This document shows positions 1 through 59,098 of a stretch of DNA of 64,000 nucleotides, in pieces. The DNA is taken from the NCBI RefSeq assembly GCF_042100115.1, contig NC_091278.1, positions 2,666,001-2,730,000 on the forward strand. The letters run 5' to 3'. The position numbers were made by a program, and so were the translations under genes. Each line of letters opens with the position of its first letter. Within the stretch, counting starts at the first letter, position 1. Source of the DNA: Alternaria dauci. Taxonomy: Eukaryota > Ascomycota > Dothideomycetes > Pleosporales > Pleosporaceae. The notes beneath the pieces were generated by a model. It did not search any database. It saw only the letters and a program-made list of their open reading frames with translations, and had not been told where the DNA came from.

Positions 1-1790
1 ACATACCTATCCCAACGGCCGCAGAGCCTACTATGCGGCGCTGTCCTATTGCTGGTAAGTTCCTGGCTCTTTTTTTCTACAAGTTATCAGCTATCTGTTA
101 CGCTGTCAGATGTATCGCTCTGTCATGGTCAGTCTAATGTTTTACATTTAGGGGACCCTCGCAAAATCTGCGCCTACTAACGACGACACTCGAAGCCTTC
201 AAAAATCGAATCACGGAAGACATGCTTCCTCGCACGATTCTCGAAGCTGTTTTTATCGCCCGTCGTCTCGGGCTTCTATTCCTTTGGGTCGATGCTCTTT
301 GCATCATCCAGGATTCCACAGATGATTGGAAAGCTGAATCCATGCTCATGGCGTCAATATACCACAATGCTTGGGTAACTATCGGTGCCGGCATAGCTAG
401 CAGCGTCCATGAAGGCGTCATTGTCTCCTCTCCACCCGCCTTGGAGCTAGAGTTGGCTCAACTACCCTCCTTTGATCCAAACGGTACTCGTACCGCTACA
501 GCATTCATAGGACTTGAGCCGGACAAGGAGTTCGTTCCCATCAAACTGCGAACTCGAGGTTGGTGCTTCCAAGAAGAGCTTCTATCGCCACGATTCCTGC
601 TTTTTGATGACGAGAACTGGGAACTCTGTTGTCAAAACCGTAAGGTTGAGAATCGTCATGACCAGTCACGTCTCGCGCACGCCTTCTTCGGCACGCACGA
701 CCCAGACGAGGAGCACTGGGAGGCCTTTCGTCAGGTTGAGCATAACATTCACCATAATTGGTGTGCCTTGATGGAGCGTTATAGCCTCCGCAGCTTGACA
801 GTCGCATCGGACAAGCTCGTCGCCATCTCAGGGCTAGCGAAGCGATTCCAAGCAGTTACGCATGATACCTACGTAGCTGGCGGGTGGGCAAAGAGCATCG
901 CGCACGATATCATGTGGGAGATGCAACGGGCCCCTGTCCGAGAAGATGATCCGAGAAAGGGAGAAGCAAAGTTTCTCGCCCCGAGTTGGAGCTGGGTCAG
1001 CGTCGACGCCGGAGTCATCTGGCCGTACAATAACGAAATGGAGGACAGTGATATAGTCGTTACGAACATCAGTATCAGCCTGACGTATGAGAATCTAAGC
1101 ACGAGCGAGTATGACCCTTTTGGTCCGCTGTTGGGTGGGCACGTGAACATGCAGGGAAGGATGAAAGAGGGCAGGATATCATGCGTCCGATCCGTGGGGC
1201 GCTCAGGTTTCGAAAGCTTTGATTTCAGCTTTGAGGCTTCCACGCCGGAAGAAGGGGGTAAGTCTCCCGTCTCATCTCCCAATCCACTGTGATGAGTATA
1301 CTGGGCTTCCTTGGAGGCCTACATCGTAGAACCAAGGCTAAAATCCATCCTAGAGCCACCTCAGTCCCTGCGTGAATCGAAGCCTAGAATCAAGCTAGAT
1401 TACCTATCCGCAGCCGCCTTACCGAAGACGGAACAGCTCAATGGTACCGATTGGGTAACAGGGACCGTATACGCACTGGAAGTGCTCAAGACAGCTGGGC
1501 TGATTATAGAGTCCGTAGAGGGTCATGCGGGAATCTATCGTCGGATTGGACGGTACTCTTTGCCTCAGACGTTGGCATCCATGTTTGCCTCTACGTCCGC
1601 ATTTCGGCTTTTAGGACCTAAGAGCAGCGGCCCGAAGCCCCCGACGTATAAGGTTCTCCAAACAAACCTCGATGGGTCTGTTGTGATTGACGCAAGTAAT
1701 CCAGTTTACGAAGAGAGCGAGGAAGATCTGCAGAGAATGTACGCAGATTGGTGGTTCGGTAGAGCCGTAACAAATATCGTACTTGTATAG
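1..1790 (+). CDS. HET-domain (heterokaryon incompatibility) protein, 5' end outside window
   Basis: The 3' part of a fungal HET-domain gene; the family acts in non-self recognition and cell-death signalling after hyphal fusion. Proposed exons are 1-54, 152-1257 and 1330-1790. Intron 1 (55-151) starts GTAAGT, ends TTTAG and joins ALSYC to WG in frame. Intron 2 starts GTAAGT at 1258; the AG at 1328-1329 keeps the frame (72 nt), whereas the AG at 1315-1316 does not. HET landmarks appear in order: YAALSYCWG, LPRTILEAV, RRLGLLFLWVDALCIIQD, NAWVTIGA, RGWCFQEELLSPR and APSWSWVS. The last exon carries the GIYRRIGRY element common near HET protein C-termini. No partner domain such as ankyrin or NACHT is seen in this part. 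The gene is not RIPed and converges with the next gene about 160 bp downstream. Family call is secure; the acceptor of intron 2 is inferred. Confidence 0.9.
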
Positions 1791-1946
1791 AAGTCAGTAC
1801 AATATAGGGAGAGCTTCTTCGGCAGACTCGAAATATAGCTGGAATTGCAAGTAGTTGGCATGAAGGATTGAAATGCCTGCGCATCGGCTGATAGTTGCAG
1901 GTCAGGTCAGGTAAGTAGCACTTCAGAATCACTATACAGACCTCGC

Positions 1947-2844
1947 TCATAGCCTCCGCCTCTTCCTCATCTGACGCGGCGGCATATGAACTGTCCACCA
2001 TATGTCATCCAGCCCGTCGTCATCATGGCCCGGCTCCTCAGCCTGTCCACGACCAACATCAACCGCCTCACCTCCGTCTCCTTGCCTCTCTTCTTCCGTC
2101 GTCGTGTCATGCTCCTCAGCCACCGTCGCGCCCCGAACGAACCTCGTCATTCTGCCCAGCGTCGTCATCTGCTCCGCAACCACCCACCAGAGCTCATCCA
2201 CCAGTACCTCGGCGGCCGCTTTAAAAACGGGCTTGAACCAGCTCCTTTCCCCACCGCCAACCTTGGTTTCTTCTCCTTCGTCGTCGTCGTCGTCTTCCTC
2301 GACGATCCCCTGCTCCGTCTCCGCGGCCGCGACCAGCAGGAACGGGACGTCGCCGCGTCGCCAACGCGGCTTCCCCTCGTGCGCCTCATTCACTTCCGCC
2401 AGCGACGTCCGCAGCACCGAGGCCACGGCGGCGGGTGATGCGCAAAGGAAGACGGGCAGATCGAGACCCGACGGGAGGGCGCCAGACGCGCGCATGGTGC
2501 GATAACTGGCGCGCGCCTTCTCAACCCAGTCTCCTCCCATCCCTGCCTCCCCTTTTCCTTGCTCGCCCTTGGCGTCTTCGTCGTCGTCGTCCACCTCGAC
2601 CCAGCGGATCTCGAACGAGCGTCGCGCCTCGGCGATCTCGTCGGCCGGCTGCCCTTCCTCCTCCAACGCCTTCTGGATCGGCATCACCGCTATCTCCCAT
2701 GCGCGTGTGTAGAATTGGGCCACGTCCGACTCCGGCATGGCGGCGACGGCATTGCGAGTATAGAACGCGACGAAGCCCCAGGCCCCGCCGCCCGCCCGTT
2801 TATGCCAGGTCTTGAGCCAGTCGGGGGGGGATGGCGGAGGCCGT

Positions 2845-2885
<41 letters not shown>

Positions 2886-3167
2886 TTGCGCAGACGACGA
2901 TGACAACGTGGGGGCGGCAGAAGAAACCTCTTTCTCGAGCTTCATGCGGCGCAGCTGCTCCTGCCACACGACGCGAGCCATCTCCATAACGCCGTCCTCG
3001 CCGAGCGCGTCGCGGAAGCCGGCCTGCATCTTGGCGCGCTCCTCGTCCGACAGCGCGGCGTTGTCAGCGGGCGTGGCGTGAGCATACCGCTTGAAGTTCC
3101 AGCCGGGCGGCCAGTAGGTGCTGGCGGCGTTGGTATAGGAGGTGAACGAGCTGGACGGTTTCGACAT
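1947..3167 (-). CDS. Hypothetical fungal protein with polyglutamine tract
   Basis: An intronless 406-residue reading frame on the minus strand. The frame is open to 3251, but the first 28 residues are low-complexity and Pro/Cys-rich, so the Met at 3165-3167 (MSKPSSSFTSY) is the likelier start. From the N-terminus: a conserved-looking segment with YWPPGWNFKRY; a charged helix; a run of 13 or more Gln near residues 95-110, encoded by a CAG/CAA microsatellite at about 2842-2885; then WLKTWHKR and WGFVAFY; two acidic Asp/Glu runs near residues 195 and 290; and a basic C-terminus (RKRRRL). The WGF(V)xxY segment resembles an uncharacterised family often found near HET genes, but this is weak recall and no function is claimed. 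There is no signal peptide or TM segment. Opposite-strand ORFs at 2002-2903 are GC-rich shadows. Confidence 0.7.
2842..2885. repeat. CTG/CAG microsatellite encoding polyGln
   Basis: Near-pure GCTGCTGCT triplets with a few GTT interruptions, read as Gln codons on the minus strand inside the hypothetical gene. The length is likely polymorphic between strains. Confidence 0.85.
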
Positions 3168-3387
3168 GGCTCTGGGCCGGAGGCGGGGTGGACAAGGTGA
3201 GTGGTGAGGTGGTAGGGTACAACAAGGCGAGATTGATTGAGTGCTCCTCAAGATCCAACTGGAAAAGATGCACTACTCAATTGCGAGTTCATACCAAGGA
3301 ACCATTTGAAAGGGATAGTCTGGTTCAGCGCTACGGCTTCGCAATAGTCTCTTCAAACACATTCAGCCTCGCACGTTAGCAGTAGAG

Positions 3388-3700
3388 CTAAGCCAGCACC
3401 TCTCCTAGATGGGAACTGTCTTTGCTGGAGCAAAAGGGCGGAAACCAGGCGCCACTTGCCGGCTGTACAAAATAGTCGCTAAAGTCGCTCAAAGAGGGGT
3501 TGCTTGAGGCATCGGGCGAGTTGGAGTCAGGGAAGGGAACGTTCGTGGGCTCATCTTCAGAACTGCTATCAGAGTCGCTAGAGTCGCTGCAATCGCTGGA
3601 GGATATTGCGGAGGACGTTCGAGTGGTCTTGGGCTGTCGGAGGAGCTTCGACCGAAGTAGATATACTAGAAAGAGGGGGTTCGCGAGAGTCTGGCAGCGA
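3388..3700 (-). pseudogene. Ser/Asp-rich minus-strand reading frame, possible last exon or gene remnant
   Basis: The minus strand is open for about 100 codons up to a TAG at 3388-3390. Its last 70 residues look coding-like: a Ser/Asp/Glu cluster (SSDCSDSSDSDSSSEDEP), then alternating Pro/Ser, then SDFSDYFVQPASGAWFPPF. No good Met heads the frame. An intron acceptor-like TTTCTAG lies just upstream near 3670-3680, so it could be the final exon of a gene whose 5' exons have decayed. The plus-strand frame across the same bases (3500-3778) encodes SLESLQSLED-type low complexity and is the poorer choice. Product unknown. Confidence 0.3.
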
Positions 3701-4699
3701 GAGTACAGGTACGGTCATTTGAATCAAACACTGTCAAAAACGATCTCACTACCGTGGACCTGTATTATTTGTGCCTGACAGTTGACTGTCTTGGACCGGT
3801 GGAAGAGCAAAAAACATACAACAGCGGGGATTCGCTAGTAGTCACCCACCTAACTACTAATCCGCCGGTACACTGCTTGTATATAGCTGAGCGCACGGGA
3901 AGCCTAATTGTCTCCTGTCCGGTAGTCACAAGTGTCCTCAAATTTTTTTTGTTTACAGTAAGTGGGTAGCTGGCTGCGTCATCCCTGGACGCCTTAATCA
4001 GTCAGGCCAATGTGCAGCAGGCATTTCGCGCTAACAAGCACGCCATGCATGTGTACCTTTTGTCAGCGCGTGATGCCTGCTGTGTATTGGCGCACCCCCT
4101 TAGGCGCCCAGCGATAATGTAGCTAATGAACGCGAAATGCCATGTTAGCACATTGCTGATTCCCCGTCATGTATCGGGAGATACCAATATTCGTATCAGA
4201 CGTTCTGCGTACGTCAACTACACGCACAGACAATACATAGCCAGTTGTAAGACTGCGTTTACCGCCGGCAGTAATGCCACACCTTCGCGGGCGGCGTTAC
4301 TGCATCTGTCTCGCAACTACAAGTGTTCCCTGCACTAGCATCGTTACATAAGTAGCTAGCTATCGCGCATAGTATTTCACTTGAGTGATCAGAGTATGTA
4401 GAGTGTGCTTTCTTTAGCCAAAGTCTAAGACTGGTCTTTTGTCTTTCACTACCTATAGTGCCAGGTCCCATGCAAGATAGAATAGATAAGTACAATCTCA
4501 GCCTTCACTTCGCTATGCAGCGAATCATGCCGCCTTTGATCTGCTTACCTCAGCGAGGCTGAGTGCGAGGTCTGACGTCGGTGGGCGTTACCATTCTGAA
4601 CGGTAACCGATACAAGCTTAGCTTTCCGCTCAACCAAACAGTATAAATCCTACGCTCTTCTTCCTACTTTTTGCTGTTACAGAGGCGTAAAACCAGAAA
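3701..4699. other. Intergenic, no gene recognised
   Basis: Normal base composition with CA and TG present, so it is not RIPed. Only short unconvincing ORFs. It should contain the promoter of the interrupted membrane-protein gene starting at 4700; an AGTATAAATCC TATA-like motif lies at about 4640-4650. Confidence 0.4.
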
Positions 4700-4846
4700 A
4701 TGACGAAGGGGCACCAGTCGTTCTTCACGTACCCTCTGACGCGACCGTTACCGTTCAAATGGTACACGCCGACAGTTGTTCTTGGTGGTTTAATCTTCAC
4801 CGTGATTTTCACTTTTCTCAATCTTGCCTCTAGCGGTTACAACCTA

Positions 4847-4885
4847 CAGTGTCTGTGCGCGTAATGCCTAGGTTCGCGTAATGCC
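4847..4885 (+). repeat. P1 left terminal inverted repeat
   Basis: 39 bp, a perfect reverse complement of 6904-6942. It contains a duplicated decamer (GCGTAATGCC), a plausible bipartite transposase-binding site. CpG-rich and barely mutated compared with the interior. Confidence 0.95.
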
Positions 4886-6903
4886 CGCCCCTAACACTAT
4901 AACACTATAACTTTAGCGCGATATAACTCTACTAATATAGATCTAATTTAAGAAGTAATTAAAGAAATTAAATTATATAAGCTAGGAGATAATTTCTTAT
5001 ATATAAAAGTTGCTGCTAAGTTTAATATTAACTAGCGTACACTCGCTTAAAGATATTAGGGTAAAATAAGACCCTATAGCGTTAGCTATTAATCCCTCTA
5101 CCTATAATACGAAGCTAAGCTTATATAATACATTAAGACGCTTACTAAGTAACGTTTACTACCTATAAGGATAATAATATATTAATTTACTTTATCTTTA
5201 GCTAGAAAAGAAGTTTTAGATAGCTAGGTTATACGCTTTATAAATAGGTATTTAGATAACCTTATTACTTAGTATAGTTAGGGGATAGACTAGTTATACT
5301 ATAAAGCTAATTTAGGGGAGAAGTATAGCTTATATTTTAAGCTCTTATATAATAAGATAGAAGAGTATAACCTTATACTAACCTATATATTTAATATAGA
5401 CGAGAAGGGATTTTAACTTAGAATACTTAATAGAATAAAGTAGGTATTTAATAAGGTACTCTATAACTAAAAAAAAGTAACTTAGGCTCTTTAAGATAGC
5501 TTAACTAAGTAGATAACTATCTTAGCTTATATTTATTTAGATAGCTTAGTTCTAAGTCCTTTACTTATCTTTAAAGGAGCTAATAGAGCTATTTAATCTA
5601 GCTAGATAGATACTATTAAAGTAGGTAACTACTTAGTCTTTATTACCTTATCTCCCTCTAGTTAGAGTAATAATAATATTAGGTTAACTTAGCTTAAAGA
5701 AGTCTTTAAAAGAGAGACTAGAAGGTATACTTTAACTAGCTATTACTTACTACTCCTTAATAGCTATAGATCTTATATAATAATAGATTTTATTAATTAT
5801 TACTATAATAATAAGATCCTATTAGCTATATTTCTATCTTATACTACCTATACACTTTAACTACTTAATATTAAGATATTTAAGCCTCTCTTAACTACTT
5901 ATTTATCTAAACTAATAAACTTTCTTTAATTAAGCTATAGTTTACTTAATATTAGTAAAGGAGACTTCTTCTTACTCTTTTAGAGAGCTTAGAGTAGTAC
6001 CTTTAAACCTCTACCTATTAAAAGATTATTTAAAGTAACTAGTATATACTTACCTAACTTAGATACTATACTTAAGAAGTTTACTAAAGAAGTATTAGAT
6101 TTAGATAAAAGCTTAACTTCTATACTTAGTAGAGAAGACTAGCTTAAGATTAAGTCTATTATATACTATATAGTAAAAGATTAAAGTAATAAGGATATTA
6201 AGAAGCTTTAATAAAGTTTATACTATATTATAGCTTAAAATAGTATCCTCTAAAGAGAGATTAGGGGCCTTAGGGAGTCTTTAGCTATTAAAAAAAGGTA
6301 TAATAATAAGTCCTATACCTTATAGCTTAAGAGTACTTAGGGGTATTATAGAGGAGCTATTTTTTAGTTACCTAAGCGTGTTTAATAAGCTTAGGATAAT
6401 AAAGTATTATAATAATAATAAGCTATATAATAATAACTTTAAAAAGTAGAGAGGAGATAGCTAAAGGAGTAAACCTACTATTATAAGCTTTAATTACTTA
6501 AGGTAAGGCGTATTAAATAAGAGAGATATTAGGAGGTATAAAAGAAAGAGTTAGCTAAAAAGATAACTAAAAAGTAATATTAGAAAGCGCTTTATAACTC
6601 TTAAAAAGCTATATAACTATCCTAAAAGAGTAAGTATAAAGCCTTATAAGCTCCTAAGATAGCTATAAAGTGTTAGAAGTATATTAGTAATACTATAGCT
6701 TTTATATAAGCCTTAGTAGTTATACTAGTAGCTCTACCCTAAAGAACTAAAATATAGTTAATCTACACCCCTAAAAAATATTCTAAGTAAGCTAAAACTT
6801 CTATAAGGCTATATATAGTATAAATCTAGCTTTATATAACTTTATTATAATTTTTAGTAGTATTATAGCTTCTTTTCTTATAAGGTTATAGTGTTATTAC
6901 CTA

Positions 6904-6942
6904 GGCATTACGCGAACCTAGGCATTACGCGCACAGACACTG
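6904..6942 (-). repeat. P1 right terminal inverted repeat
   Basis: Perfect inverted partner of 4847-4885, ending CAGACACTG and followed by the duplicated TA at 6943-6944. Confidence 0.95.
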
Positions 6943-8314
6943 TAGTTTTGCAATCAACACTTGACTCAAACACAACAATCTCGCAGAATCAGTGGCTACG
7001 ACAATGGCCATCCTATTTCACCTCCAAAATAAAACCATTATGCCAGTCTGTCGATCTGCCCGTTAATGGAAAGTTTTTACAAATCAGACCGCGCTATCGT
7101 ATGGACTGATGGCAGTCTGGCAACAACACGATGGGCATAGAACCCTCCTACCTTCGTTGACCTATCACAACAACATCCTACAAGATTGTTCTATCAACTC
7201 TATCGGAGTAAAATTTCAAGCTCTGGACCAGGGTGGAAACCAAATATCGTATTCTGAATGGAACGCTATCGTTCGCACATATGCGACGTGTCAAATTCTC
7301 AATGCGCTCGGCACCGTTTTCTTCAATATTACGCAAACATACACTTACGTCCCATCAAAAATATCATTCTCATGGGTCAAAAATGGATTTCTCGGAACGG
7401 AATTCCTCTCCCGTCACAAACAAGCACAAGGCAGCCTTTGGTGGGGCGAGTCGTTGATGGCAAACTATTGGGCCTATTCGACGCGGTTGATGCAAGACAT
7501 CCGCGCTAACATGACAGCTGTTGGTCGACTGGGAATCCGAAAGGGCTTTATATATTTCACACCCATGGGACTTCCAACGGACCTGGCCAATCTGGACTTT
7601 TTAATCCCCGACTACCGGTTCATCGTGGATCTAGGCGGCGGCAACTTCGATGTCATCGCACCAGACAGTGCCCTAAAGAATGCGACAATCGGCCGGCTGG
7701 GACAGAAAAAAATATATCCCAATATATGGATACCCGTGGATACCTTGGCCAAGTCTGCATACTCTACGGTCCTCGCGGACCTCGGACAGGTTAACAAACC
7801 AAACATCCTGACCAACACGACAGCACTTGAATACTTCACAGCCAACTTCACCGCCATGAAGAAGCACATGGCAAACGCCGAGCCTGGACCGGAGCGAGAT
7901 CCCTTTGATGCCCAGCAGCGCGCTATTACAGGGCCACTGCGTGTTCTTCCCTCTGTTATTTCGGCAAGATACCTGTGTCAGGTGCCGCAACTAAAGTCCA
8001 CCGGGAATCTGATCGTGGCTATTCTCGTTGCCAATCTGGTTTTTCTGCGGACAGTATGGCAAATATTCAAATTATGCATTGAGGCATATTTAGTGCGTAA
8101 GCATCCAGACGCAATGAAATGCAAAGGCTGCGCAGGCGATTTATCGGATGATGAATTGCTAGGGCTTCGGACATTCTCGATGGGATCTGGGGAGGTAGAA
8201 GGGTCGCGGAACTCCGAAGTCCGTCTCCACTCGGTTGATATCCCATCCAGTCTTCTATCAAGACCTGAGGACGGAGAATTTGGAGAAAACTCCAGAATGA
8301 TTCACGATAGGTAG

Positions 8315-8901
8315 ACGTCTGGCAGGGAGTGATAAGTTCAAAGACAATGAAAACATCAGGGGCCGGATTTAAGGAGAGCCTTGGGCGTTAAGGCTGATGG
8401 TGCGCTGGCCTGAACAACTTCGTATGGCCACTCTAGATTAGTTCCATAACTGAATAACTGCCTATTCTGCCTTAAAAAAATGTTCCACATCCTCCGCTAC
8501 TATATCCGTGCTACAGGGGCACTCTATAGCTCTAGTGCTTCACTTGCAAGGCGTTGCCACGGTTGTGCGTCGTCTACAAAGTTAGCAGTAACGTAGCCTA
8601 TCGAGTGTTTGCTAACAGGATTCGCCATGAACACTGCCGAGTTCCAACTAGATTCGAAGTTCATCAATTGTTTGTAAGTGGACCAGCACGCCGTGTACTC
8701 ACAAGAGGTGCAGTAGACCTGAACTCAGCATGAGAACCGCCTATAGGATCTGCCGCTTCCGTCTAACAGCGCGGAAGTTGCGAAAACTTTAGACACTAAT
8801 GTCGAGCTCTTGCAATTGAAAGTGTGCTTTGTTGATTTCTTCTTGGGTAGGAGCGAGCAGAAGTTGCGCATAGTAGTTGCTTGCCCTACAGTAGCGTGTT
8901 A
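8315..8901. other. Un-RIPed intergenic sequence
   Basis: Balanced composition with CA and TG present, downstream of the interrupted membrane-protein gene. No ORF, RNA gene or repeat recognised. Confidence 0.5.
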
Positions 8902-8952
8902 CAGTGCCCGTGCGCGGGTCGAGCTAGTTAGTGGGTCGAGCCACCCCACTAA
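8902..8952. repeat. GC-rich hairpin at the left border of the RIP block
   Basis: After a TA (8900-8901) the sequence runs CAGTGCCCGTGCGCGGG, then the direct repeat GGGTCGAG twice, then a palindrome with arms TTAGTGGG and CCCACTAA (8928-8952). Saturated RIP starts about 20 bp later. It could be the terminal repeat of a DNA transposon (TA plus CAGTG start) or a Helitron-type subterminal hairpin. No matching far end was found by eye. Confidence 0.4.
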
Positions 8953-9889
8953 TATCAGACAATTACAAATATAAGGTTATATAGCTACACTAAATAGCTA
9001 TTATTATAAGATTTTTTAGAGTATTAATATATTAAAGCCTCTAAAGCTTTTATACTAGTTATTTCTTACTAGTATCTTAATTTAGTAGCTACGCGCGCTA
9101 TTTTTAAGTAGGTAAGATACTACTAGTAAACTAGTATTAACTTAACTTAATATAGTTATAATATAATAATACTTTATTAGATTCTTTACTACTTTATATA
9201 AAGCTATTTACTTATATTTTTCTACTATATTATGACTTTTTTTAGTAGTTATAGCTTATAATTATAATTTTTTAAGTAGTTATTATATAGCTAGTTCTTT
9301 AGTATACTATTAAACTTTATAAGTATACTTAATTCTAGCTTATTATAAAGCTACCTTTATAGTTTCTTAAACTTACTTTTTATAAACTATTACTACTACT
9401 CTTACCTCTTTATTATAAGTTTTTTAAAGTTATAGTTATATAAGTTTATTTAGTTTAGTAACTTTATATATATACTTATTAGTAAGCTTTTATAAACTAT
9501 AGAATATAGTATTACTATACTAGTTATTATTATCTTATATAGCTAGTATTATTATAAAGTAAGCTTATAAGTAAAGTTATATATATATAGTTTAAAAATT
9601 AAAACTATAAATAGGGGTCCTTTATTTTATCTAGTATATATTTCCCCTTTTAGTATTCTAATATTCTACTAAAAATTAATCTTTTTTTAGCCTATATACT
9701 AAGCTAATACTAACTAATACCTATTTACCCCTTTTCTAGCCTAGTTACTATATTACCTTCTTACTCTAAACTATAACTATTTATATACCTATTTTACTTA
9801 TTATACCTCTTATAATACTACTACCTAAGTACTATAAGTATAGTAAAGTACTAAGTACTATAATAGATATATTTTAGTTTAGGAAATAG

Positions 9890-22917: not shown

Positions 22918-24005
22918 TTTTTTTTTTTTTTGTTTTCTAAGCTTTCTCTTAACTATCTACTTAGGCTACTAGTAAGAAACTAAAGTAAATTAAAAACTTA
23001 ATTTATTAGTATAATAATTACTTTACTAGTAATACTATATATTTACTTAAAGAGCTTTAAATATTTAATTATAAGATTAACTATATTATTAATAATAGTA
23101 AAGCTATAACTTATACTACTTAAGTAAATAAGAGTTATAGTAAATAGGCTATATATATAGAAGAGAATTTTAAAATAGCTTTAAGTAGTATTATTTAATA
23201 AGTTAAGAGAAGGGAAGTAAGTATTTAAGAAGAGGCTTAAAATATTATAAAGCTTAAGATTATTATTATTTAAGTTAATTTAATCTTTAGTATACTAGTA
23301 CTTTATATTTATATTAGTATTAATATTAAGTATAGTCTATAATTCTAAGAATAGCTACTTAATACCCTTAATATAATTATATATTATAAAGTGTATAGTA
23401 TTAAAGAAAGTATTTCTTTTTAGTATATTAAAGTAGAAGTTAAGAAATAGAAATTTAAAGAATAGTTATTTAAATATTTCTATAGCCTTAAGTACTATTA
23501 TTATAAACCTAGAGTTAAGCTATAAACTATAGTTCTTAATTAAAAAAACTCCTCTTCTACTTTAACTCCTCTTCCCCTTACTATTACTATTATAATATAT
23601 AGGATATAGCTTAGCTAGAAGAGTACTAAGGTTTTAATATAATTACTTCTCTTATTATCTCTATAGATAAGGAACTTACTCTTAACTTATACTTTACGTG
23701 TAGGAAGACTAGTAAGAATTATTATTATTACTTCCTTAGTATACTATTAGAATATAAAGCTATCCCTTACTATTCTCTTCTAGTATAAAGTAAATACTAT
23801 TACTTATAACTACCCCTTATAACTATAACTTCTTAGAACTACTTAAAGTTTAAATCTTTAGTATTTACTTATTTATTATTAAACTATATATAGCTATATA
23901 TAATAAAAATAAGTATTTAAGAACTATACCTTTACTATAATTTACTATAGTATCTTTTCATAGTATTATACTTACGTTTATTACTAGTATACTTATTATT
24001 TAAAT
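22918..24005 (+). repeat. R2 repeat copy 1
   Basis: Begins with a run of T and GTTTTCTAAG, and ends ACTAGTATACTTATTATTTAAATA. The last about 550 bp recur inverted at 29,580-30,220 and direct at 48,540-48,841. No recognised protein. The T-rich start resembles R1's. Confidence 0.6.
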
Positions 24006-24780
24006 AAATACTTTAAATATACTATTATACCTTTTAGGTTTATAAATACCTTAGTAATATCTTAGGAACTTATAAATAATATATTAAGAGTATACCTAGA
24101 TATCTTTATTATTATATACTTAGATAATATTCTTATCTACTTTAAAAATATAAAAGACTGTATTAAATATATCTATTTAGTACTAAGGTACTTAGAAAAG
24201 TTAACCTCTAACTAAAGCTAAAGAAGTATAAGTTCTATAAGAATAAAGTTACTTTCTTAGGGTATATAGTAGGAGCTAAGAGAGTATTAATAAGTAAAGA
24301 TAAGATTAAGATAGTTAAAGATATATAGTCTTTCCTTAGATTTCTAAACTTTAATTAACAGTTTATTAAAGACTTCTTAAAGATTACTATCCCTTTAATT
24401 AGACTTAGAAAGAAAGATATACCTTTTAAGTAGAGTAAGGAAGTAAAAAATATCTTCTAGATACTTAAGAAAGTAAGTATTAAACTACCCTACTTCTATA
24501 TATATATAGTAGGATATAAGCTATACTTTAAGATAGATATATTAGACCTTATATTAGGAGGATACATTAATATATATATTAATAGGAAATAGTAGTATAT
24601 TACTAACTACTCCTATAAGTTTACTGTAGCTAAAGAAAACTATAACGTTTATAATAAGGAGCTACTAGCTATTATAGTATACCTTAAGTATTAGAGAGTA
24701 TACGCTAAAAGCTACTTAGAACTTATAATATTTATAGATTATAAGAACTTAGTTAACTTTATAATAACTAAAGTACTTAA
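24006..24780 (+). mobile_element. Gypsy A-type RT/RNase H fragment
   Basis: Nearly identical to 38,090-38,876 of gypsy A: the YLDNIL catalytic region of reverse transcriptase, the connection, and the start of RNase H. It lacks a 20-odd-bp insertion seen at about 38,386 in gypsy A. It ends abruptly at 24,780, where un-RIPed sequence begins. Confidence 0.8.
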
Positions 24781-24953
24781 CCGACGCGCTGATAGAGAAA
24801 AGGCTGCAAAATATTATACATTAATCACGGATCTGTGTACTTGAAGCAAGCGATGGAGAAACTCCGAAGTGCAAACCCATTCCGGGACGCACGGCGTCCC
24901 GGCTCGCTTGGATTGACGTTAATCCTCAATGCAATTTACTGCTGTACGTCTCC

Positions 24954-26010
24954 TTACTGCTTCCTCTTCATCTCCAACTTCTCTCCCCTGACACGCTGAT
25001 CCTTCTCCGGCTCCCTCATCCTCGCCATCCCCCTAGTCGGCGCATTCACCAGACTTGCTAACGTAAGATGCACACTCCTGGGCGCCATCTTTATTATTAG
25101 TATATTCGCTATAGCGTTCTAACTACTAAATACCTCTCTCTTACCCTAGTATAAGCCCCTATATCCTACTATAGCTATAGCCTTTAGATCCTCTAAGGCG
25201 CTAGGACCTATTACCCCTATTATAACTATCTTATTAGCGTACGTACGCGTAATAAACTACGTATATATAGGGCTAGGTATAAGCTACGTGTTAGTAATAC
25301 TAGGATAGGCGCGTAGTTCAATGGAGAGGGCTTCTGAGAAGGCGCGGACGTAGTGCTTGGTTGCGTGATAGATGTTTTGGCCCGGGGAAGCCATCCATCC
25401 TAGGATCCTTGGTTAGTACATGTTCACTGTGTATATATCGGGCGTGAACTTACTACTAACGCTAGAGATCTAGAGTATCTATCCCTAACCTTATTTAATT
25501 ATATCTCTACTAAAGAGCTATAAAAGTATAACTAGACTTATATAATTAAGGGTTATTATACCCTCTACTAGCTTAATAGATTATTTAAAAGTATTACCTG
25601 CGCCTCCTAGGGCTGCGCCGTTTACCAGGACATCCACGACGAAACCTTTCTCGGTGACATGGTCATAGAGCTTTTGGGCTGCTCCTTGGATGGAGAGATC
25701 GGAACTGATCGTATAAGTCTTTCTCGCATACTTCTCCGAGATATTATTCTTAACCGCCTCAAGTTGCTCCTTATTCTATCCTACTAAGATTAGATTATAA
25801 CCTCTCTCTATAAAGATATAGCTAAGCTCTACTCTAATACTACTTAAGGCTCCGGTGATCAGGACGAGACCCTTGGGTGGTTTGGGTCTGGGAAGGAAAA
25901 GGCGCAATAGTAGGAGGAAGGCCGCTGCCACCGGAAGGGCTAGAACAGCCGGAAGACCGAAGAAGAGAACGGAGGCTACGATAGTGATGAGCGCGAAGTA
26001 GGAGATAAGG
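24954..26010 (-). pseudogene. SDR1: short-chain dehydrogenase/reductase, mosaic RIP
   Basis: Minus-strand SDR of about 345 codons, stop TAA at 24,954-24,956; the start lies in RIPed sequence near 26,010 or beyond. In order: a hydrophobic N-terminal anchor (VLFFGLPAVLALPVAAAFLL), then LVLITGALSSIR where the Rossmann motif TGxxxGIG should be, a clean stretch VDVLVNGAALGGAG, the catalytic YHATK with VRAFSEALSIEL, and a clean C-terminus (SLVNAPTRGMARM, ending KRKQ). Overall it resembles membrane-anchored fungal SDRs of the hydroxysteroid-dehydrogenase/Dhs-27 type. RIP stops occur only in the mutated tracts (about 25,090-25,315, 25,456-25,595 and 25,770-25,850); between them CA and TG are intact. 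Not functional as it stands. The plus-strand hydrophobic frame from 24,863 is a shadow. Confidence 0.8.
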
Positions 26011-26553
26011 TTAATATTAATATTATTAAGTACTAGCTATATAGGTTTATAAATAGTTAGGTTACTATTATTAATTACGTAATAGGAAAACTATTAATTA
26101 CTATTATCTTTAATAGATATATAAGTATCTACTATAATAATTAGTAGTTTTAGTTTAGTCTTTATAAATTATTATTAAGCTAGGTTATAAGGTGTAGTAA
26201 GGGAATATTATAAGATTAAGGGGCGTAAGAGGTATAGTTATAAAGGAAGATAGTACTATCTAACTACTTTACGTAATAGTAACGTAAGTAGTAGTATAAG
26301 CTAGAAAGTACGTATTAAATTAATATAGAACTAATAAATTATTTAGTCTCTAAATTAATTTTCTATTAGGATATAGACGTAGATAAACTTAAGGCTACTA
26401 TACGTATAGATATAGTATATAATAACTATGGGGTGGCTCAGGACAGATCATATCAGGAAAGAGTTTGCATTAAGATAATTTAGCTTTGAGCGGACATACT
26501 AGGACAGCCAACGTCCGTTGATGGGCTTGAAGAAGGGAGTAACAGGCCGTAAC
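26011..26553. other. Spacer between SDR1 and SDR2, RIPed then clean
   Basis: 26,011-26,425 is fully RIPed, probably SDR1 upstream sequence. 26,428-26,553 is normal sequence, the 3' flank of SDR2. No further gene seen. Confidence 0.5.
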
Positions 26554-27775
26554 TCACGAAGTAGCATTCCAGTCCACCAATGCATCATCACCGACCTTGT
26601 CCTTGATGATCCGAGTGCTCAGGTCCCATAAGGCAGCACCTAGAGCTGGATCAGAGGCTTGCTTCGTCTCCTTACCAGGCTGGCCAGGATTATTAAAGTA
26701 GTAGCCATTCCAGCCTTTCTCCTCAATCTCAGGGCTGGTCGCAGCGTATAATATACTATAAGAACCTTACTTAACGTTATATCTACTAGTAAGTATAATA
26801 GTAGTTACTATCTTACTAAATAGACTAGGGTAAGTATCTTTCTATCTATTATTATAGTGTTAGTTAGTAAATATATATAATAACTACTAAGCTTAGGGAT
26901 ACGTACTATTACTATATAGTAGTATTTACCTGAGATCATGATTAGCGACACCTGTTATATCAAACCAGAGAGACGTCGCTTACTACGCTTAGATAAACTA
27001 AGAGAGCGTAGATATTATTATTATTTAGCTTAATAACCTAATCGAGTAGACTATACTTAACGCTAAGGATAATAGCTAGCTTCGTCCTACTATACACTTC
27101 TAGATTACTAATCTCTAGGTTATTAATCTTATTAAGTGAGCTAAAATAGACTATAGAAGGAGCTATATAATACTACTCTAATAACTTAAATACGATATAG
27201 GGTGTAGGCGTATTAGGTATCTTAGATATCTTCTAAAGTAGGGGGTATAGTAGGTTAACTATATAGAACTATCTAAGCTAATTAATTTAGAAGTAGTAGT
27301 TAATGTAATTATTAGTCTCTCTATATTAGTTTATATTAATACTAGTAGAAAGAATAAGCTATATTACCTATTAGCTAAATAGCTAAATTACTTATTATAT
27401 ATAAACTTACTAAGTTAAGTTACTCCTTATACTCTTATATCTTTATAAAGACCTCTTTAACCTCCTTAAGTATACCTATATTATATCCTTCCCATTCGAT
27501 CTTCGCATCCTGACCGTACTCTTCCTTGATCTTCTTGATAGCCTCTTCACCTTGCTCTTCCTTATAGTTAACTATAATCACTCGCACTCTATTCTAAATA
27601 AACGCTTTAGTAATTTTAAAGCTACGTTATAGTTAGTTATTAAATATTACTATAGACTATAGTCTTTCGTATCTTACTCTATACCTATAGCACTACTAGT
27701 AATAAGAGTAACTCTACTATTAAGATTATGTATTTCCTTTTTCGGGCCAATGACGGGATGTAGAATGGACTGCAT
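26554..27775 (-). pseudogene. SDR2: short-chain dehydrogenase, mosaic RIP
   Basis: Starts at the ATG 27,773-27,775 (MQSILHPVIGPKKEIHNL) and stops with TGA at 26,554-26,556 (DALVDWNATS). After the N-terminus comes VTLITSSAIGI, the mutated TGGxxGIG cofactor motif, then a candidate intron (GTAAGATACG to AACGTAG) and VRVIIVNYKEEQGEE with IKEEYGQDAKIEWEG in a pristine island. A fully RIPed middle still reads NLLYPLL and VYSRTKLA, the catalytic YxxxK, near 27,080. The C-terminus (EEKGWNGYYF, ALWDLSTRII) is again pristine. It fits NAD(P)-dependent SDRs of the retinol-dehydrogenase-like group. SDR2 lies upstream of SDR1 on the same strand. RIPed tracts are about 26,750-26,930, 26,970-27,480 and 27,590-27,725. 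Confidence 0.8.
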
Positions 27776-27939
27776 GGCTACTGAGGCGTTAACGCGTGAG
27801 TAATTACTGTGTAAGTTTGGTTGTGTAGGTAGTAGTAGGAAGAGTTCTAAGGTTGCAGCGTTGGTGAGGTCTTGACGTGGGATAAAGACGCGTCGTATTT
27901 GCTTAGTATATATAGCGTTATTATAATTTTATTACGTTA

Positions 27940-29020
27940 TAGTACCTATGCGCGTAATAAGCTAGTTCGCGTAATAAGTTACCCTACTATCTTAATATTA
28001 TATATTATCTTATCTTTAATATATTATAACTTAACTACTATAACTATAATTTAAGAAGTAATTAAATATATTAAATTATATAAAGCTAGAGATAATTTCT
28101 TATACTACTAAGTTATAAAAAAATTTAGTATTAATTAAATGACGCTGTCGCGGTAGTGTAAGGGCGTGTAGGCTTCCTATAACACTAAATTATAATAATA
28201 ATAAAAACTCCTTAGCCTATAATAAGAGGAGGAGTTAATAAAGTATATAGAGTAATATATAAGGGATAGTATACTACCTATATAAAGTATTTTAAAAAAT
28301 TTTAGCACTATAGTTACGTAGTTAGAGGTATCTAATAGCTAGATTATATAATTTTAATACTACTATTCTAACTAGCTTACTACTAAATAGGACACTAGTA
28401 TTAATTATAAATATTACCTAGCTAATAGTAAGTATAAATATAAGTTATACTTTAACTTACTATACTCTAAGATATAAGAATATAGTATTAATATAGATAA
28501 TCTATATAATATAGATAAGAAAGGCTTCTTTATTAGTATAATAAACTATACTAAAAGGATCTTCTCTAAAGTAGTTTAGGAGGTAAAAGAGTACACTATA
28601 GTATTAAGAGATAGTAATAGGGAATAGGTTACGCCATTAGCTTATATATACACTTCTAGTAATATATTACTACCTACTCTTATCTACTAGGGCACCTCTA
28701 GGGTTTAATTAAGCTAGGTTTATAACCTTTTAGCTAAATAATACTAGATTTTTATCTCCTACTTAGTAATAGGATAGTTAAATAATACCTTAAGACTTAC
28801 TTAGCTTTAGTAAGTATTTAAGTACTATACTACTACTAAAGCTTACTAGTAATAATATCTTCTACTTCTTAATAGCTATAGTATATCCTTTATATTTAAC
28901 CTATAGCTTATATTATACTAGTGTATAGAGTAAGAAAGGAGGTTTCCCTATAAGTACTCTTTCTACTCTTTATTAAAGGAATTATTAATTAGTTGTCTAT
29001 CTATTATTAAACCTTTATAG
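27940..29020 (+). mobile_element. P2: pogo-like transposon related to P1
   Basis: After a TA (27,938-27,939) the left end runs TAGTACCTATGCGCGTAATA, a RIPed form of the P1 terminal repeat including both GCGTAAT decamers. Plus-strand reading gives a pogo transposase: MTLSR.CKGV.ASYNTKL, KLLSL..EEELIKYI, then DNLYNIDKKGFFI (first DDE Asp) and LLNSYSISF, a RIPed form of the GHGSH-type second motif. The short tract 28,139-28,170 inside it is un-RIPed. The right terminus was not found. Confidence 0.75.
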
Positions 29021-29579: not shown

Positions 29580-30229
29580 TAAGATTCTATTTAAATAATA
29601 AATATACTAGTTAAAGATATAAGTATAATACTATTAAAAGATACTATAATAAATTATAGTAAAGGTATAGTTCTTAAATACTTATTTTTATTATATATAG
29701 CTATATATAGTTTAATAATAAATAAGTAAATACTAAAGATTTAAACTTTAAGTAGTTCTAAGAAGTTATAGTAATAGTAAGGGGAAGAGGAGTTAAAGTA
29801 GAAGAAAAGTTTTTTAGTTAATAACTATAGTTTATAGCTTACCTCTAGGCTTATAACTATAGTACTTAAGGCTATAAAAATATTTAAGTAACTACTAGCT
29901 CTTTAAATTTCTATTTCTTAACTTCTAATTTAATACTCCATCCTAAAGCTTACTACTAAAGAGAAATACCTTCTTTAATACTATATACCTTATAATATAT
30001 AACTGCGTTAAGGGCGTTAAGTAGCTATTCCTAGAGTTATAGACTATACTTAATATTAAAATAAATATAAAGTACTAGTATACTAAGGATTAAATTAGCT
30101 AAAATTATAATAATCTTAAGCTTTATAGTATCTTAAGCCCCTTCTTAGAGACCTACCTCTCCTCTATTAACTTATTAGATAATACTACTAAGGACTAATA
30201 TAAAATTCTCTTCTATATAGATAGCCTAT
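29580..30229 (-). repeat. R2 copy 2, left part, split by gypsy B
   Basis: Reverse complement of the 3' part of R2 copy 1. It stops exactly at the CCTAT target duplication (30,225-30,229) and resumes after 49,108 with CCTATTTACTATAACTCTTAT, matching R2 copy 1 around 23,130-23,150. Gypsy B therefore landed inside a pre-existing R2. Confidence 0.7.
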
Positions 30230-30705
30230 TATTATATAGGGGTTTACTATACTTCTCTAAGCTTAGTCCTTACTAAGGTAAGATAAGTTTAGGTAATAGT
30301 CTATAAAGTAGTATATAGAATAATTAGGTAGAAAAAAGTTATTATTATAACTAAGAGAATAATAATACTAATCCTATTAATAATAGAATAACTAGTTAAT
30401 AATCTATATAAGAGATAAACTATTTAAGTTAACTATAATAAGTATAATAATAAGATCTAATATATTCTTATACCTATTACTTTAGGTCCTATCTTTCTTA
30501 CCCTCTCTTCTAAGAGGGAGGCCTAAGAGGGCTAAGGCCTCCTAATCCTTACTAGCCTCTTAGAGGCTAGGTCTTAGTAAGATACTATTCCTTTTATATA
30601 ATCTAGGCCCTACCTTAGATCTACTTTTATCTATTATATCTACCTAATAGTCTTCCTTTATATAACTTATATAAAAAGGAAGTAACTCCTTATTACTTTA
30701 TAATA
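30230..30705 (-). repeat. Gypsy B 3' LTR
   Basis: 476 bp. It reads as the RIPed reverse complement of the intact 474-bp LTR at 62,648-63,121, including the GAGGGAGGCC-type palindromic centre. Confidence 0.9.
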
Positions 30706-37700: not shown

Positions 37701-39763
37701 AAGATTATCTTAGAAGAAAGGAAAACTCTACCCTTTAGGCTAATATATTAACTATTAGAGGTAGAACTTAAGATACTAAGAGAAAAGCTAGACTAAGACT
37801 TAAAGAAAGGCTATATAAGACCTTCTATATTACTAGTAGGATTCCCTATACTCTTTATACTAAAGAAGAGGGGACTACTAAGGATATATATAGACTACTA
37901 TAAGCTTAATAATATTATAGTAAAGAATTAATACCTACTACTAAATATTACTAAACTTTAGGATTAATTATCTTAAGCTAAGGTCTTTATAGTACTAGAC
38001 TTTTAAGATAGATACTACCTTATTAGGATTAAGAAAGGTAAAGAATAGAAGATAGTATTCTATATAAGATATAAATACTATAAATATACTATTATATTAT
38101 TTAGGTTTATAAACACCTTAGTAATATTTTAAGAACTTATTAATAACGTATTAAGAGTATACCTAGATATTTTTATTATTATATACTTAGATAATATCCT
38201 TATCTACTCTAAAAATATAAAAGACTATATTAAATATATTTATATAGTGCTAAGGTACTTAGAAAAGTTAACCTCTAACTAAAGCTAAAGAAGTATAAGT
38301 TCTATAAGAATAAAGTTACTTTCTTAGGGTATATAGTAGGAGCTAAGAGAGTATTAATAAGTAAAGATAAGATTAAGATAGTTAAGGAAATAACCTAAGA
38401 TAGTTAAAGATATATAGTCTTTCCTTAGATTTCTAAACTTTAATTAACAGTTTATTAAAGACTTCTTAAAGATTACTATCCCTTTAATTAGACTTAGAAA
38501 GAAAGATATACCTTTTAAGTAGAGTAAGGAAGTAAAAAATATCTTCTAGATACTTAAGAAAGTAAGTATTAAACTACCCTACTTCTATATATATATAGTA
38601 GGATATAAGCTATACTTTAAGATAGATATATTAGACCTTATATTAGGAGGATACATTAATATATATATTAATAGGAAATAGTAGTATATTACTAACTACT
38701 CCTATAAGTTTACTGTAGCTAAAGAAAACTATAACGTTTATAATAAGGAGCTACTAGCTATTATAGTATACCTTAAGTATTAGAGAGTATACGCTAAAAG
38801 CTACTTAGAACTTATAATATTTATAGATTATAAGAACTTAGTTAACTTTATAATAACTAAAGTACTTAACTAATACTAGGTAAGATAGTTAAAAGAACTA
38901 AGATAGTATAAGTTTAAGATTATATATATACTAAGAAAAGATAATAGTAGAGTAGATACTCTTAGCTACTAATATAATATTATAGGAACTAAGTTAATTA
39001 CTAACTCTATATTACTTAAGATTAATAAAGATAGATTACTAAGACCTACTAAGATACTAAACTAAATTATAAAGATTACTAGTAAAGTACTAAAAGAATT
39101 ATAAGAAGTAATTATTAGATAATACTATAATAACCCTATATATAGTTACCCTAGTATTATATAAATAATAGAACTTATTAAGTAAAATTATAAGTTTCTA
39201 AGTATAAAGAATAAGATTACTACCTTTATTATAAAGTGCGTAAACTATTAGAAGAATAAGTATAGTACCTATATACTATATAGAGAAATATAAGTAATAG
39301 AACTACCTAATATACTATAGTTAGATATCTTTATAGACTTTATTATAGGCCTACTAGTCTTAAGAGACCTTATTACTAAAGTATCTTATAATATAATTCT
39401 TATAGTAGTAGATAGATTTACTAAGTAAGTAGAGTATATTACCTTTAGAAAAGACTATATAGTAGTATAACTTATATATTATCTATAACTAAATTATTTA
39501 ATATTATAGTATATTAAAGTTAATTATTAGTAATAAAGATAAGCTCTTTATATTAAACTTTTAGATAATATTACTTACTATAATTAGAACTAAGAAAAAG
39601 CTATTAATAGCTTACTATCTATAGATAGATAGATAGATAGAATAAATAAACTATATAATAAAAGCCTACCTATAGATTTATATTAATTATTAGTAAGAAA
39701 ACTAGGTATTATTACTACTTATAGTATAAATAGTATATAATAATTAACTCTTAGAGTTTATAA

Positions 39764-52278: not shown

Positions 52279-53794
52279 ATTACTTAATTCTTTTTAATAA
52301 AGAAAAGAACTTATTAGCTCTATTAGTATAGTATATATATAGCCTAGAATATCTAAGGGTATTATAAACTTATTATTATTTTAAGCTTCTATTAACTTAA
52401 GTTAATAGTCTCTCTAAGAAGCTAGCGACTAGCTAAAGCTAGCTTAGCTATTTAGTAGAGTAAGGTCTTACTTATTATTATAATTAAGTAGATAAGTTAC
52501 CCTATAAACTAAGAATAGCTATATACTACTACCTAAAAAATTAAGAAAGAGCTCTTAATCTATTAATCCTTATTTTATCTAAACCTAGTAAGTTTCCCTA
52601 TATTAAGTTAAATTAAGCTGTAGGCTCTACGCCTAGTAGTAACCTTCTATTAATTTCTTTAAGTTTTAGCCTTATAACTATAATCCCCCTAGAACCTAAA
52701 AACTTTAATTTCTTATAAGGTGCTAAGTAAGTTAGAAAAAGAATATTACTTAATCCCTAGTTAGTATAGTTTATAGTTAAGACTATAATAGTATCTAATT
52801 ATCTTTAATCCCCTAACTTTTATTTACTAATTAATAAAAATATCCTTAGTAAATACTTTCGTAGTAGTTAGTCTTTAGTAAATCTAAGAATTTTACCTCT
52901 AATAACTAAATACTAATACCCCTAACTATTCCTATTAATTATTACAGCGTCTCTAGAAACTAATAAAATAGAAACGTACGCCCTATTTTATTATTCTATA
53001 CTAATATATTCGAGTAAAGGCCTACTTTAAACACTCTAATTTTTTTAAAGTAAAAGTCTTAGTTCCTTAGTATACTTAGTAAAGGGTATAAGGTTCGCTA
53101 AAAGGAAGGTCTAGCTAGATAAGTGCACGTAGTAAGGTAGACCTACTAGCTAGACCTAAGTTTTAACTATAAGCTTTTTAACTATAATAACTTTAATATA
53201 CGCTATTAGAGCTAGAATTACTATAGCTACTAGCACTAGACTTACCCTCTAATTATTCCTTATTAAGAGGTTTAAATTATACTTATTCTAATTATAAGAC
53301 CTAAAAGAGCCCTATATTAGTATTTATTATTACTACCTCCCTATATTAGGATTAGGTAATTTACGCGCCTACTACCTTCCTTAGATATAGTAGCCGTTTC
53401 TTAGGCTCCCTCTCTAGAATCAAACCCTAATTCCCTATTACCTATTAAAACTATAGTAAGCTAATACCTTACTATTAAAAGTTAATAAGGTAGAAATTTA
53501 AATAAACTATTACTAGCGTAAGGCTATATAATCTATAAAGTTATTATAAATTACTAAAGAGCCCTAAAGGGTATTAGTTTTTTATCTAATAAATATATCC
53601 CTTCTAAAGTTAGGATTTTTAGTATATATTAGCTCTAGAATTACTATAGTTATCTAAGTAGTAAGGTATTATTAAATAAATAATAACTAATTTAATAAGC
53701 TATTTATAGTTTTATAGTATAATTACTTATACTTAGATATATATAGCTTAATCTTTAAGATAAGTATATAACTACTAGTAGAATTAACTAGGTA
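52279..53794 (-). rRNA. RIPed 18S rRNA relic, copy 1, 3'-truncated
   Basis: Antisense to the 18S gene. The 5' end (from TACCTGGTTGATCC) lies at 53,794, read here as GAATTAACTAGGTA. Aligns to 59,707-61,222 at a constant offset of 7,428 bp; the last about 283 nt of 18S are missing. CA/TG sites are almost all TA, so it cannot form functional rRNA. Confidence 0.95.
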
Positions 53795-55396: not shown

Positions 55397-55484
55397 AAAC
55401 TACTAGACCTTGGTTTGCTTACTTTGCTGCAAACTACTAGACCTTAGTTTACTTACTTTACTATAAACTACTAGACCTTGGTAG
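55397..55484. repeat. 34-bp tandem repeat, neighbouring units with and without RIP
   Basis: Units at 55,397-55,430, 55,431-55,464 and a partial third from 55,465, all starting AAACTACTAGACCTT. Unit 1 keeps TTGGTTTGC...TTTGCTGC; unit 2 reads TTAGTTTAC...TTTACTAT. Every TG, and the CA across the junction, has become TA. Confidence 0.9.
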
Positions 55485-55599
55485 TAATAGGCCAAGGTTT
55501 GCCATGGCAGAGCCACCCATTTCCCCTTCTATTGCCGCAGACTCTGGCTGCTCTTCAATAAACGGGGAGGGTATATATCCCAATTTCAACCAAGCTAGC

Positions 55600-58500: not shown

Positions 58501-58935
58501 CTAGCTATAAGCGCTTCCCTTTTAATAATTTTACGTACTATTTAACTCTCTTTCTAAAGTACTTTTTATCTTTTAATTACTCTACTTATACGCTATTAGT
58601 CTCTAGCTAATATTTAGCTTTAGAAGAAATATACCTCCTATTTAGAGTTATATTCCTAAATAACTTAACTTATTAAAGGGGCTTTATATAGTAATAGCTA
58701 GTAACTATATATAGGATTCTTACCCTCTATAATATCCTATTCTAAGGAACTTAGACTACTACTAAAGCTAAAGCGCCCTCTATAAATTATAACTTAGACT
58801 CTAAAAGAGCTAGATTTTAAATTTAAGCTATTACTACTTTACTTACTATTACTAGGGTAATCCCTATTAGTTTCTTTTCCTCTACTTATTAATATACTTA
58901 AGTTTAGTAGGTATCCCTACCTAATCTAAGGTTAA
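55600..58935 (-). rRNA. RIPed 28S rRNA relic
   Basis: Antisense to 28S. The 5' end near 58,935 shows the CTACCTAATCTAAGGTTAA form of the TTGACCTCGGATCAGGTAG start. Internal landmarks include the sarcin-ricin-side CCTCTCGTACTAAG near 55,937 and CTCTACTTATTAATATACTTAAG (ITS4 region) near 58,880. The 3' end is approximate, near the GACGGGCTTACAC segment. About 3.3 kb, a normal fungal length. Confidence 0.93.
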
Positions 58936-59098
58936 AAGTTAAAAAAAAGGCTTATTAGATACTAGACCTTAGGGCTAGAAGAGAGCGCGACTTATACTAC
59001 GCTCTAAAACTAGTAAGCTAGCTACTAATAACTTTAAGGTAAGTCTCCTATAAGGAGAGATAAAAAGACGCCTAACACTAAGTAAAGCTTAAGGGTAT
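58936..59098 (-). other. ITS2, RIPed
   Basis: About 160 bp between 28S and 5.8S with hairpin-like GTCTCCTATAAGGAGAG. Too mutated for taxonomic use. Confidence 0.75.

What the first reader, a model, noticed from the sequence alone, without database searches (positions are those of the whole stretch)
24780..28170. Mosaic RIP: pristine and saturated tracts alternate with sharp edges across two SDR genes
At least six short islands (roughly 24,780-25,088, 25,316-25,446, 25,597-25,765, 25,855-25,990, 26,428-26,745, 27,490-27,588, 27,727-27,885) keep normal CA/TG content, while tracts of 80-500 bp between them have lost nearly every CA/TG. Switches occur within a few bases inside single exons, and protein homology runs straight across them, with stops only in the RIPed tracts. 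Simple RIP usually mutates long stretches. This pattern suggests gene conversion between a RIPed copy and a clean paralogue, RIP footprints protected by bound factors, partial-homology-triggered RIP, or an assembly chimera.
Basis: partly seen in the sequence, partly recalled or inferred. Interest (0 to 1): 0.8.

Follow-up and report, generated by a model that had tools for sequence, protein, structure and literature searches.

The report
Patchwork of mutated and untouched DNA
Two dead enzyme genes of a fungus consist of alternating stretches that the fungus's own repeat-mutating defence either mutated almost completely or left almost untouched, which suggests that this defence works patch by patch, although an exchange of pieces with a healthy copy cannot be excluded.

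Summary
Between two RIPed transposon fragments (one cut off at 24781, one starting near 27926) lie two SDR pseudogenes on the minus strand. Eight islands (1,407 bp, 164 CA/TG) alternate with seven tracts (1,715 bp, 8 CA/TG); edges resolve to 2-15 bp. SDR1 keeps one frame through seven switches. All 24 stops counted lie in tracts.

The assembled genome shows no clean copy of SDR1 and no second copy of the segment, so conversion from a surviving paralogue is not supported; conversion with another strain's allele is not excluded. Tracts do not follow exons, introns or intergenic DNA, and do not grade away from the transposons. Coding conservation is slightly higher in tracts (P = 0.043), weak support for homology-limited RIP.

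Elsewhere in this genome the state is also nearly all-or-none: in an LTR-like repeat, 117 scored sites mutated and none unmutated in four RIPed copies, at most one mutated in each of five clean copies. Short saturated tracts also occur in single-copy DNA beside RIP blocks. My best reading is patch-wise, unfinished RIP of single-copy DNA caught between repeats; confidence is moderate. Reads or a second strain would decide. Partial precedents exist: a new variant of a known kind.

The parts
24004..24781 (+). RIPed fragment of a Ty3-like pol gene, cut off at 24781; other copies of the element continue beyond this point
   Evidence: weak Pfam RVT_1 match of one 49-residue piece, E = 0.0021, below Pfam's cut-off (the Ty3-like label is recalled); copies at 38071-38869 of the window and on C9, C2, C7; continuation in L048 and L049
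24954..26135 (-). SDR1 pseudogene (short-chain dehydrogenase), one frame without indel, one inferred intron about 25456-25398
   Evidence: Pfam adh_short E = 1.3e-27 on the read-through
26554..27775 (-). SDR2 pseudogene, five inferred exons; relatives P0098 and others are SDR proteins; the broken read-through itself has no Pfam match
24781..25089 (.). clean island 1
25090..25307 (.). RIP tract 1
25308..25449 (.). clean island 2 (SDR1 exon 2 and most of the SDR1 intron)
25450..25599 (.). RIP tract 2
25600..25770 (.). clean island 3
25771..25851 (.). RIP tract 3
25852..25995 (.). clean island 4
25996..26429 (.). RIP tract 4 (SDR1 5' end and about 290 bp of intergenic DNA)
26430..26746 (.). clean island 5 (SDR2 3' end)
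26747..26931 (.). RIP tract 5
26932..26979 (.). clean island 6, coincides with an SDR2 intron (26983-26930)
26980..27486 (.). RIP tract 6
27487..27589 (.). clean island 7, with a 17-bp RIP micro-tract at 27562-27578
27590..27729 (.). RIP tract 7
27730..27902 (.). clean island 8 (SDR2 5' end)
27926..28826 (+). start of a multi-copy RIPed element; holds a clean 45-bp patch at 28141-28185

Best explanation
The locus is an unfinished RIP product. Two ordinary SDR genes were caught between closely spaced repeats (or were briefly duplicated). RIP then mutated them patch by patch: each patch of about 20-500 bp of duplex was mutated at nearly every CpA/TpG on both strands, while the neighbouring patch was hardly touched. 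Sexual cycles or the trigger ended when about 55% of the segment was done. Shown: the bimodal state, both strands affected, sharp edges, one ancestral gene across the switches, no partner found in the assembled genome, similar short single-copy tracts beside other RIP blocks. Inferred: that the patch is the unit of RIP action, that the repeats on either side were the trigger, and that chromatin may set the patch limits.
For: Bimodal, sharp, both-strand switching. Same genes across switches; in tracts the differing codons are RIP-explicable in 34 of 35 (SDR1, close relatives) and 78 of 79 (SDR2) cases. No second copy of the segment found; no SDR1 paralogue above 29%. In an LTR-like repeat, four RIPed copies have 117 mutated and 0 unmutated scored sites, five clean copies at most one mutated each. 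Seven short RIP tracts in 27.9 kb of single-copy DNA within 1.5 kb of RIP blocks against one in 130.4 kb farther away; six of the seven were checked against the whole genome and have no second copy, apart from a 4-bp overlap of one with a short repeat. A clean 38-bp patch in a RIPed transposon copy has no second copy within 3 mismatches, so no extant donor. A micro-tract and a stray RIP hit inside islands. Junctions show no excess of shared sequence. The flanks hold homologous inverted repeats. RIP of single-copy DNA between close repeats is reported for Neurospora (PMC4858203, section 11).
Against: Both islands touching the transposons are clean, the reverse of a spread from repeats. The 2.06-kb segment 6904-8967 between two RIP blocks is clean throughout, though its gene may be under selection. 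Independent hits on the two strands should leave single-strand zones; none is evident. Tracts are slightly more conserved in coding, which favours homology limits. LTR-like copy L007 is intermediate, 3 mutated and 26 unmutated. The control for single-copy tracts rests on about 0.3 Mb, and repeat cover was judged from that sample only.
Confidence: 0.42

Rival explanations
1. Gene conversion or patchy mismatch repair between a saturated RIPed allele and a clean allele of the same locus (from another strain, or a donor since lost) built the mosaic; the islands are converted patches.
For: Explains nearly pure states and edges shared by both strands. Precedent: RIPed Podospora pseudogenes NWDp1 and NWDp2 keep clean WD repeats, explained by concerted evolution with active genes (PMC1805685, section 6). 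A clean multi-copy retroelement suggests that RIP is not acting now, so converted patches would persist.
Against: No donor found in the assembled genome. Eight separate patches of 48-317 bp are needed. No excess identity at junctions (mismatch repair would not need any). A RIP micro-tract and a stray RIP hit lie inside islands. The clean transposon patch has no extant donor.
Confidence: 0.27
2. Homology-limited RIP: the segment was RIPed against a diverged partner, now lost, that matched it only in the tracts.
For: [quoted passage not shown] Coding conservation is higher in tracts than in islands: 0.739 against 0.638 in SDR1 and 0.821 against 0.758 in SDR2, combined circular-shift P = 0.043. 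One island equals an intron and another starts near a splice site.
Against: About 290 bp of intergenic DNA and three of five inferred introns are mutated, the well-conserved island 25397-25310 is clean and the poorly conserved SDR1 5' end is mutated. Each gene alone is not significant (P = 0.115 and 0.141). No partner found.
Confidence: 0.16
3. Assembly or polishing chimera of a RIPed and a clean copy.
For: No reads could be examined. Partly RIPed 28S copies in L. maculans were left open by their authors as possible assembly errors (PMC5555474, passages).
Against: SDR1 keeps one frame without indel through seven switches. 34.9 Mb in 10 contigs. No clean copy in the assembly from which stray reads would come. 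Smaller mosaics occur elsewhere.
Confidence: 0.07

Closest known systems
RIP leakage into single-copy DNA beside or between repeats (Leptosphaeria maculans AvrLm region, PMC2973834, passages; Neurospora single-copy regions between close repeats, PMC4858203, section 11)
   Same: Single-copy genes next to RIPed repeats carry RIP mutations and stops without a second copy.
   Different: There RIP was proportional to the proximity of repeats (a gradient); here fully mutated and clean patches alternate and the DNA touching the repeats is clean.
RIPed Podospora pseudogenes NWDp1/NWDp2 with clean WD repeats (PMC1805685, section 6)
   Same: A clean block inside a heavily RIPed pseudogene.
   Different: There the clean block is a tandem-repeat domain with active donors in the genome; here eight short blocks and no donor found.
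Partly RIPed 28S rDNA copies in L. maculans (PMC5555474, passages)
   Same: RIP present in, or absent from, parts of one copy.
   Different: Multi-copy target; its authors could not say whether it was real or an assembly error.

Membership tests
Repeat-induced point mutation (RIP) | CpA/TpG depleted and TpA raised on both strands | tested here: met
   tracts 8 CA/TG in 1,715 bp with 21-28 TA per 100 bp; islands 164 in 1,407 bp
Repeat-induced point mutation (RIP) | changes are C to T / G to A | tested here: met
   34 of 35 and 78 of 79 differing tract codons RIP-explicable with close relatives; 54 of 60 with more distant SDR1 relatives
Repeat-induced point mutation (RIP) | target is duplicated | tested here: not met
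   no second copy of the segment found in the assembled genome; a lost partner or one missed by the word filter is possible
Repeat-induced point mutation (RIP) | RID or DIM-2 type cytosine methyltransferase in the genome | tested here: inconclusive
   PF00145 matches at three places, all over the cut-off; types not assigned
RIP leakage from repeats | single-copy DNA next to RIPed repeats is mutated | tested here: met
   locus lies between RIPed repeats and has no second copy
RIP leakage from repeats | mutation declines with distance from the repeat | tested here: not met
   islands touch both repeats; tracts lie inside
Gene-conversion mosaic | a clean donor exists in the same genome | tested here: not met
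   76 for the transposon patch
Gene-conversion mosaic | shared sequence at junctions beyond chance | tested here: not met
   mean interval 6.4 bp against 7.6 bp for random cuts, P(sim <= obs) = 0.20
Gene-conversion mosaic | clean and fully RIPed alleles in the population | not testable with these tools
   no other strain is held
SDR protein family | match to Pfam adh_short | tested here: met
   SDR1 read-through E = 1.3e-27; the SDR2 read-through has no Pfam match of its own, its relative P0098 E = 4.3e-24

The most novel reading that the evidence does not exclude
The unit of RIP is a short duplex patch that is mutated on both strands or not at all, with limits set by premeiotic chromatin rather than by sequence homology; this locus is a fossil imprint of that chromatin, frozen after few rounds.
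Probability: 0.2. Interest if true: 0.82.

Novelty: new variant of a known kind. Interest (0 to 1): 0.52.

Why it matters
How RIP delimits its target is not settled. A natural locus where mutated and untouched duplex alternate at 20-500 bp, with edges resolved to a few bases and no partner found, would mean either that the mutating step works in discrete patches or that conversion can rescue pieces of RIPed genes. RIP indices computed in windows of hundreds of bases would average such a locus to 'moderate RIP'. It also bears on partly RIPed rDNA copies that were suspected of being assembly errors.

Tried and rejected
Donor for the islands: searched twice by DNA and by protein for both genes. 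Only a distant SDR2 paralogue at C7:525278-526275 was found; its DNA matches are a handful of short blocks (one of 18 bp; the others 47-136 bp at 68-74%), too far to be a donor.

Simple spread of RIP from the transposons: rejected as the sole cause, because clean islands touch both transposons.

Exons mutated and introns spared: one SDR2 intron and most of the SDR1 intron are clean, but three of five inferred introns are mutated.

Nucleosome phasing: island starts fit a period near 270 bp (P = 0.001), ends (P = 0.23) and midpoints (P = 0.64) do not; left unexplained.

The close-relative half of the conservation test is partly an artefact, because several close SDR1 relatives end before the second exon; only the result with 24 and 25 longer relatives is used. 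In one search part of the island differences listed against P0049 and P0055 come from the same cause.

Functional rDNA for comparison with the rDNA islands was not found with the query used.

Literature searches listed no paper that I recognised as describing this alternating pattern; I read only passages or single sections of seven papers, and the library lacks most subscription journals.
Full report
WHERE IT IS. The window is C7:2666001-2730000 of an unnamed fungal genome of 34.9 Mb in 10 contigs. The gene at 7109-8314 is 90% identical, over 63% of its length, to a partial protein of Periconia macrospinosa, and 89% over its whole length to a metagenome protein, so the host is probably a pleosporalean fungus near Periconia. 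It is not the published P. digitata assembly, which has 15 contigs and 39.0 Mb (PMC10483032, passages). The window is clean at 1-4905, 6904-8967 and from 62649 on; apart from the islands discussed here the rest is RIPed, mostly with 0-1 CA/TG per 100 bp against about 13 in clean DNA.

THE OBSERVATION. Between 24781 and 27902 a two-state dinucleotide model finds eight islands and seven tracts. Islands hold 164 CA/TG in 1,407 bp, tracts 8 in 1,715 bp. The islands are stable over a 20-fold range of switching cost, apart from a few extra short sub-segments. At p = 0.01 the model makes no RIP call in 70 kb of clean DNA. In 50-bp bins the locus is bimodal. Fifteen scored edges resolve to 2-15 bp. 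Retained CA and retained TG both reach within about 25 bp of most edges; at a few edges one of the two stops 40-50 bp short, so that the strands switch together as far as the sites allow, which is not a fine resolution.

ONE ANCESTRAL SEQUENCE. SDR1 (minus strand, about 26135 to 24954) reads in one frame through seven switches, apart from one inferred intron. SDR2 (27775-26554) has five inferred exons. Against close relatives, differing tract codons are RIP-explicable in 34 of 35 cases in SDR1 (89 codons aligned) and 78 of 79 in SDR2 (207 codons), while islands carry 3 and 6 RIP-type and 4 and 1 other differences in 105 and 113 codons. With five more distant SDR1 relatives the figures are 54 RIP-type and 6 other in 156 tract codons, 7 and 17 in 173 island codons. 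Stops: 11 and 13, all in tracts (all). So islands and tracts are parts of the same genes and RIP is the main difference between them.

NO PARTNER FOUND. A search of the assembled genome at E <= 10 with 24781-27905 returned itself and a 64-bp self-match only. The best SDR1 paralogues are 26-29% identical. SDR2 has one distant paralogue, with blocks of 43-80% amino-acid identity and short DNA blocks of 68-74%. The DNA search skips very common words, so a heavily RIPed partner could be missed, although RIPed transposon copies were found readily with other queries. Stretches that are withheld or unassembled were not searched.

SURROUNDINGS. On the left, a pol-like fragment is cut off at 24781, while other copies of that element continue. 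On the right, a multi-copy element starts near 27926. Parts of the two flanks (23143-24006 and 29588-30230) are homologous to each other in inverted orientation. Both islands next to these elements are clean.

HOW RIP BEHAVES ELSEWHERE IN THIS GENOME. In a 468-bp LTR-like repeat, four RIPed copies have 46, 18, 31 and 22 scored sites mutated and none unmutated; five clean copies have at most one mutated site each; a further copy (L007) has 3 mutated and 26 unmutated. A 7.18-kb element with this repeat at both ends is repeated yet clean, so RIP has not acted on it. Single-copy DNA within 1.5 kb of RIP blocks holds seven short RIP tracts (32-95 bp) in 27.9 kb, against one in 130.4 kb farther off. 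That call listed 15 near rows: two are the same places seen in an overlapping locus and six lie in repeats. The overlapping loci also inflate the 27.9 kb; L044 and two parts of the window were left out; repeat cover was judged from about 0.3 Mb. Six of the seven tracts were checked against the whole genome: none has a second copy, apart from a 4-bp overlap of one with a short repeat. In the right-hand transposon the window copy keeps a 45-bp clean patch where several other copies are mutated; a 38-bp piece of it has no second copy within 3 mismatches. Conversely the first 46-86 bp of that element are called clean in five other copies, up to the equivalent of about 28010-28023, and mutated in the window copy (positions compared by hand).

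WEIGHING. Conversion between clean and RIPed alleles explains the purity of the blocks and has a precedent in Podospora (PMC1805685, section 6). But no donor was found, there is no excess junction homology, and a RIP micro-tract and a stray RIP hit lie inside islands. Homology-limited RIP is weakly supported by higher coding conservation in tracts (combined P = 0.043, each gene alone above 0.1) and by one island that equals an intron, but intergenic DNA and three other introns are mutated. Graded leakage, the behaviour reported in L. maculans (PMC2973834, passages), is not seen. Patch-wise, all-or-none RIP of single-copy DNA caught between repeats accounts best for the whole set. RIP of single-copy DNA between close repeats is described in PMC4858203 (section 11). 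The strongest objection is that the DNA nearest to the repeats is clean, and that the 2.06-kb segment 6904-8967 between two RIP blocks is untouched.

LIMITS. No reads, no second strain and no nucleotide orthologues were available. The regularity of island starts near 270 bp is unexplained and rests on eight points, three tests and a scanned period.

Noticed in passing
52329-53791 and 55585-61222: RIPed rDNA outside a recognisable array: one LSU, 5.8S, SSU unit and a second partial SSU. Clean islands 55412-55434, 55490-55612 and 56880-56934 lie in or beside the RIPed LSU, a second, sparser mosaic.
   Followed up: partly
62645-63112; L032, L033, L008, L040: A 468-bp LTR-like repeat, clean and 92-98% identical between copies, sits right at RIP-block edges, while older copies inside the blocks are fully mutated.
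   Followed up: yes
L032-L033 (C7:2621840-2629021): A clean, repeated 7.18-kb element with that repeat at both ends: a young retroelement that RIP has not touched, although PF00145 methyltransferase matches are present at three places.
   Followed up: partly
27926-28023; L002-L006: The first 46-86 bp of the right-hand transposon are called clean in five other copies, with edges within about 13 bp of each other, but mutated in the window copy.
   Followed up: partly
6904-8967: A clean 2.06-kb segment with an open gene (7109-8314, no Pfam match) survives between two RIP blocks.
   Followed up: partly
222-1292: HET-domain (heterokaryon incompatibility) gene, Pfam E = 6.1e-18.
   Followed up: no
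24781-27902: Island starts fit a spacing near 270 bp (P = 0.001 in one of three tests); unexplained.
   Followed up: partly
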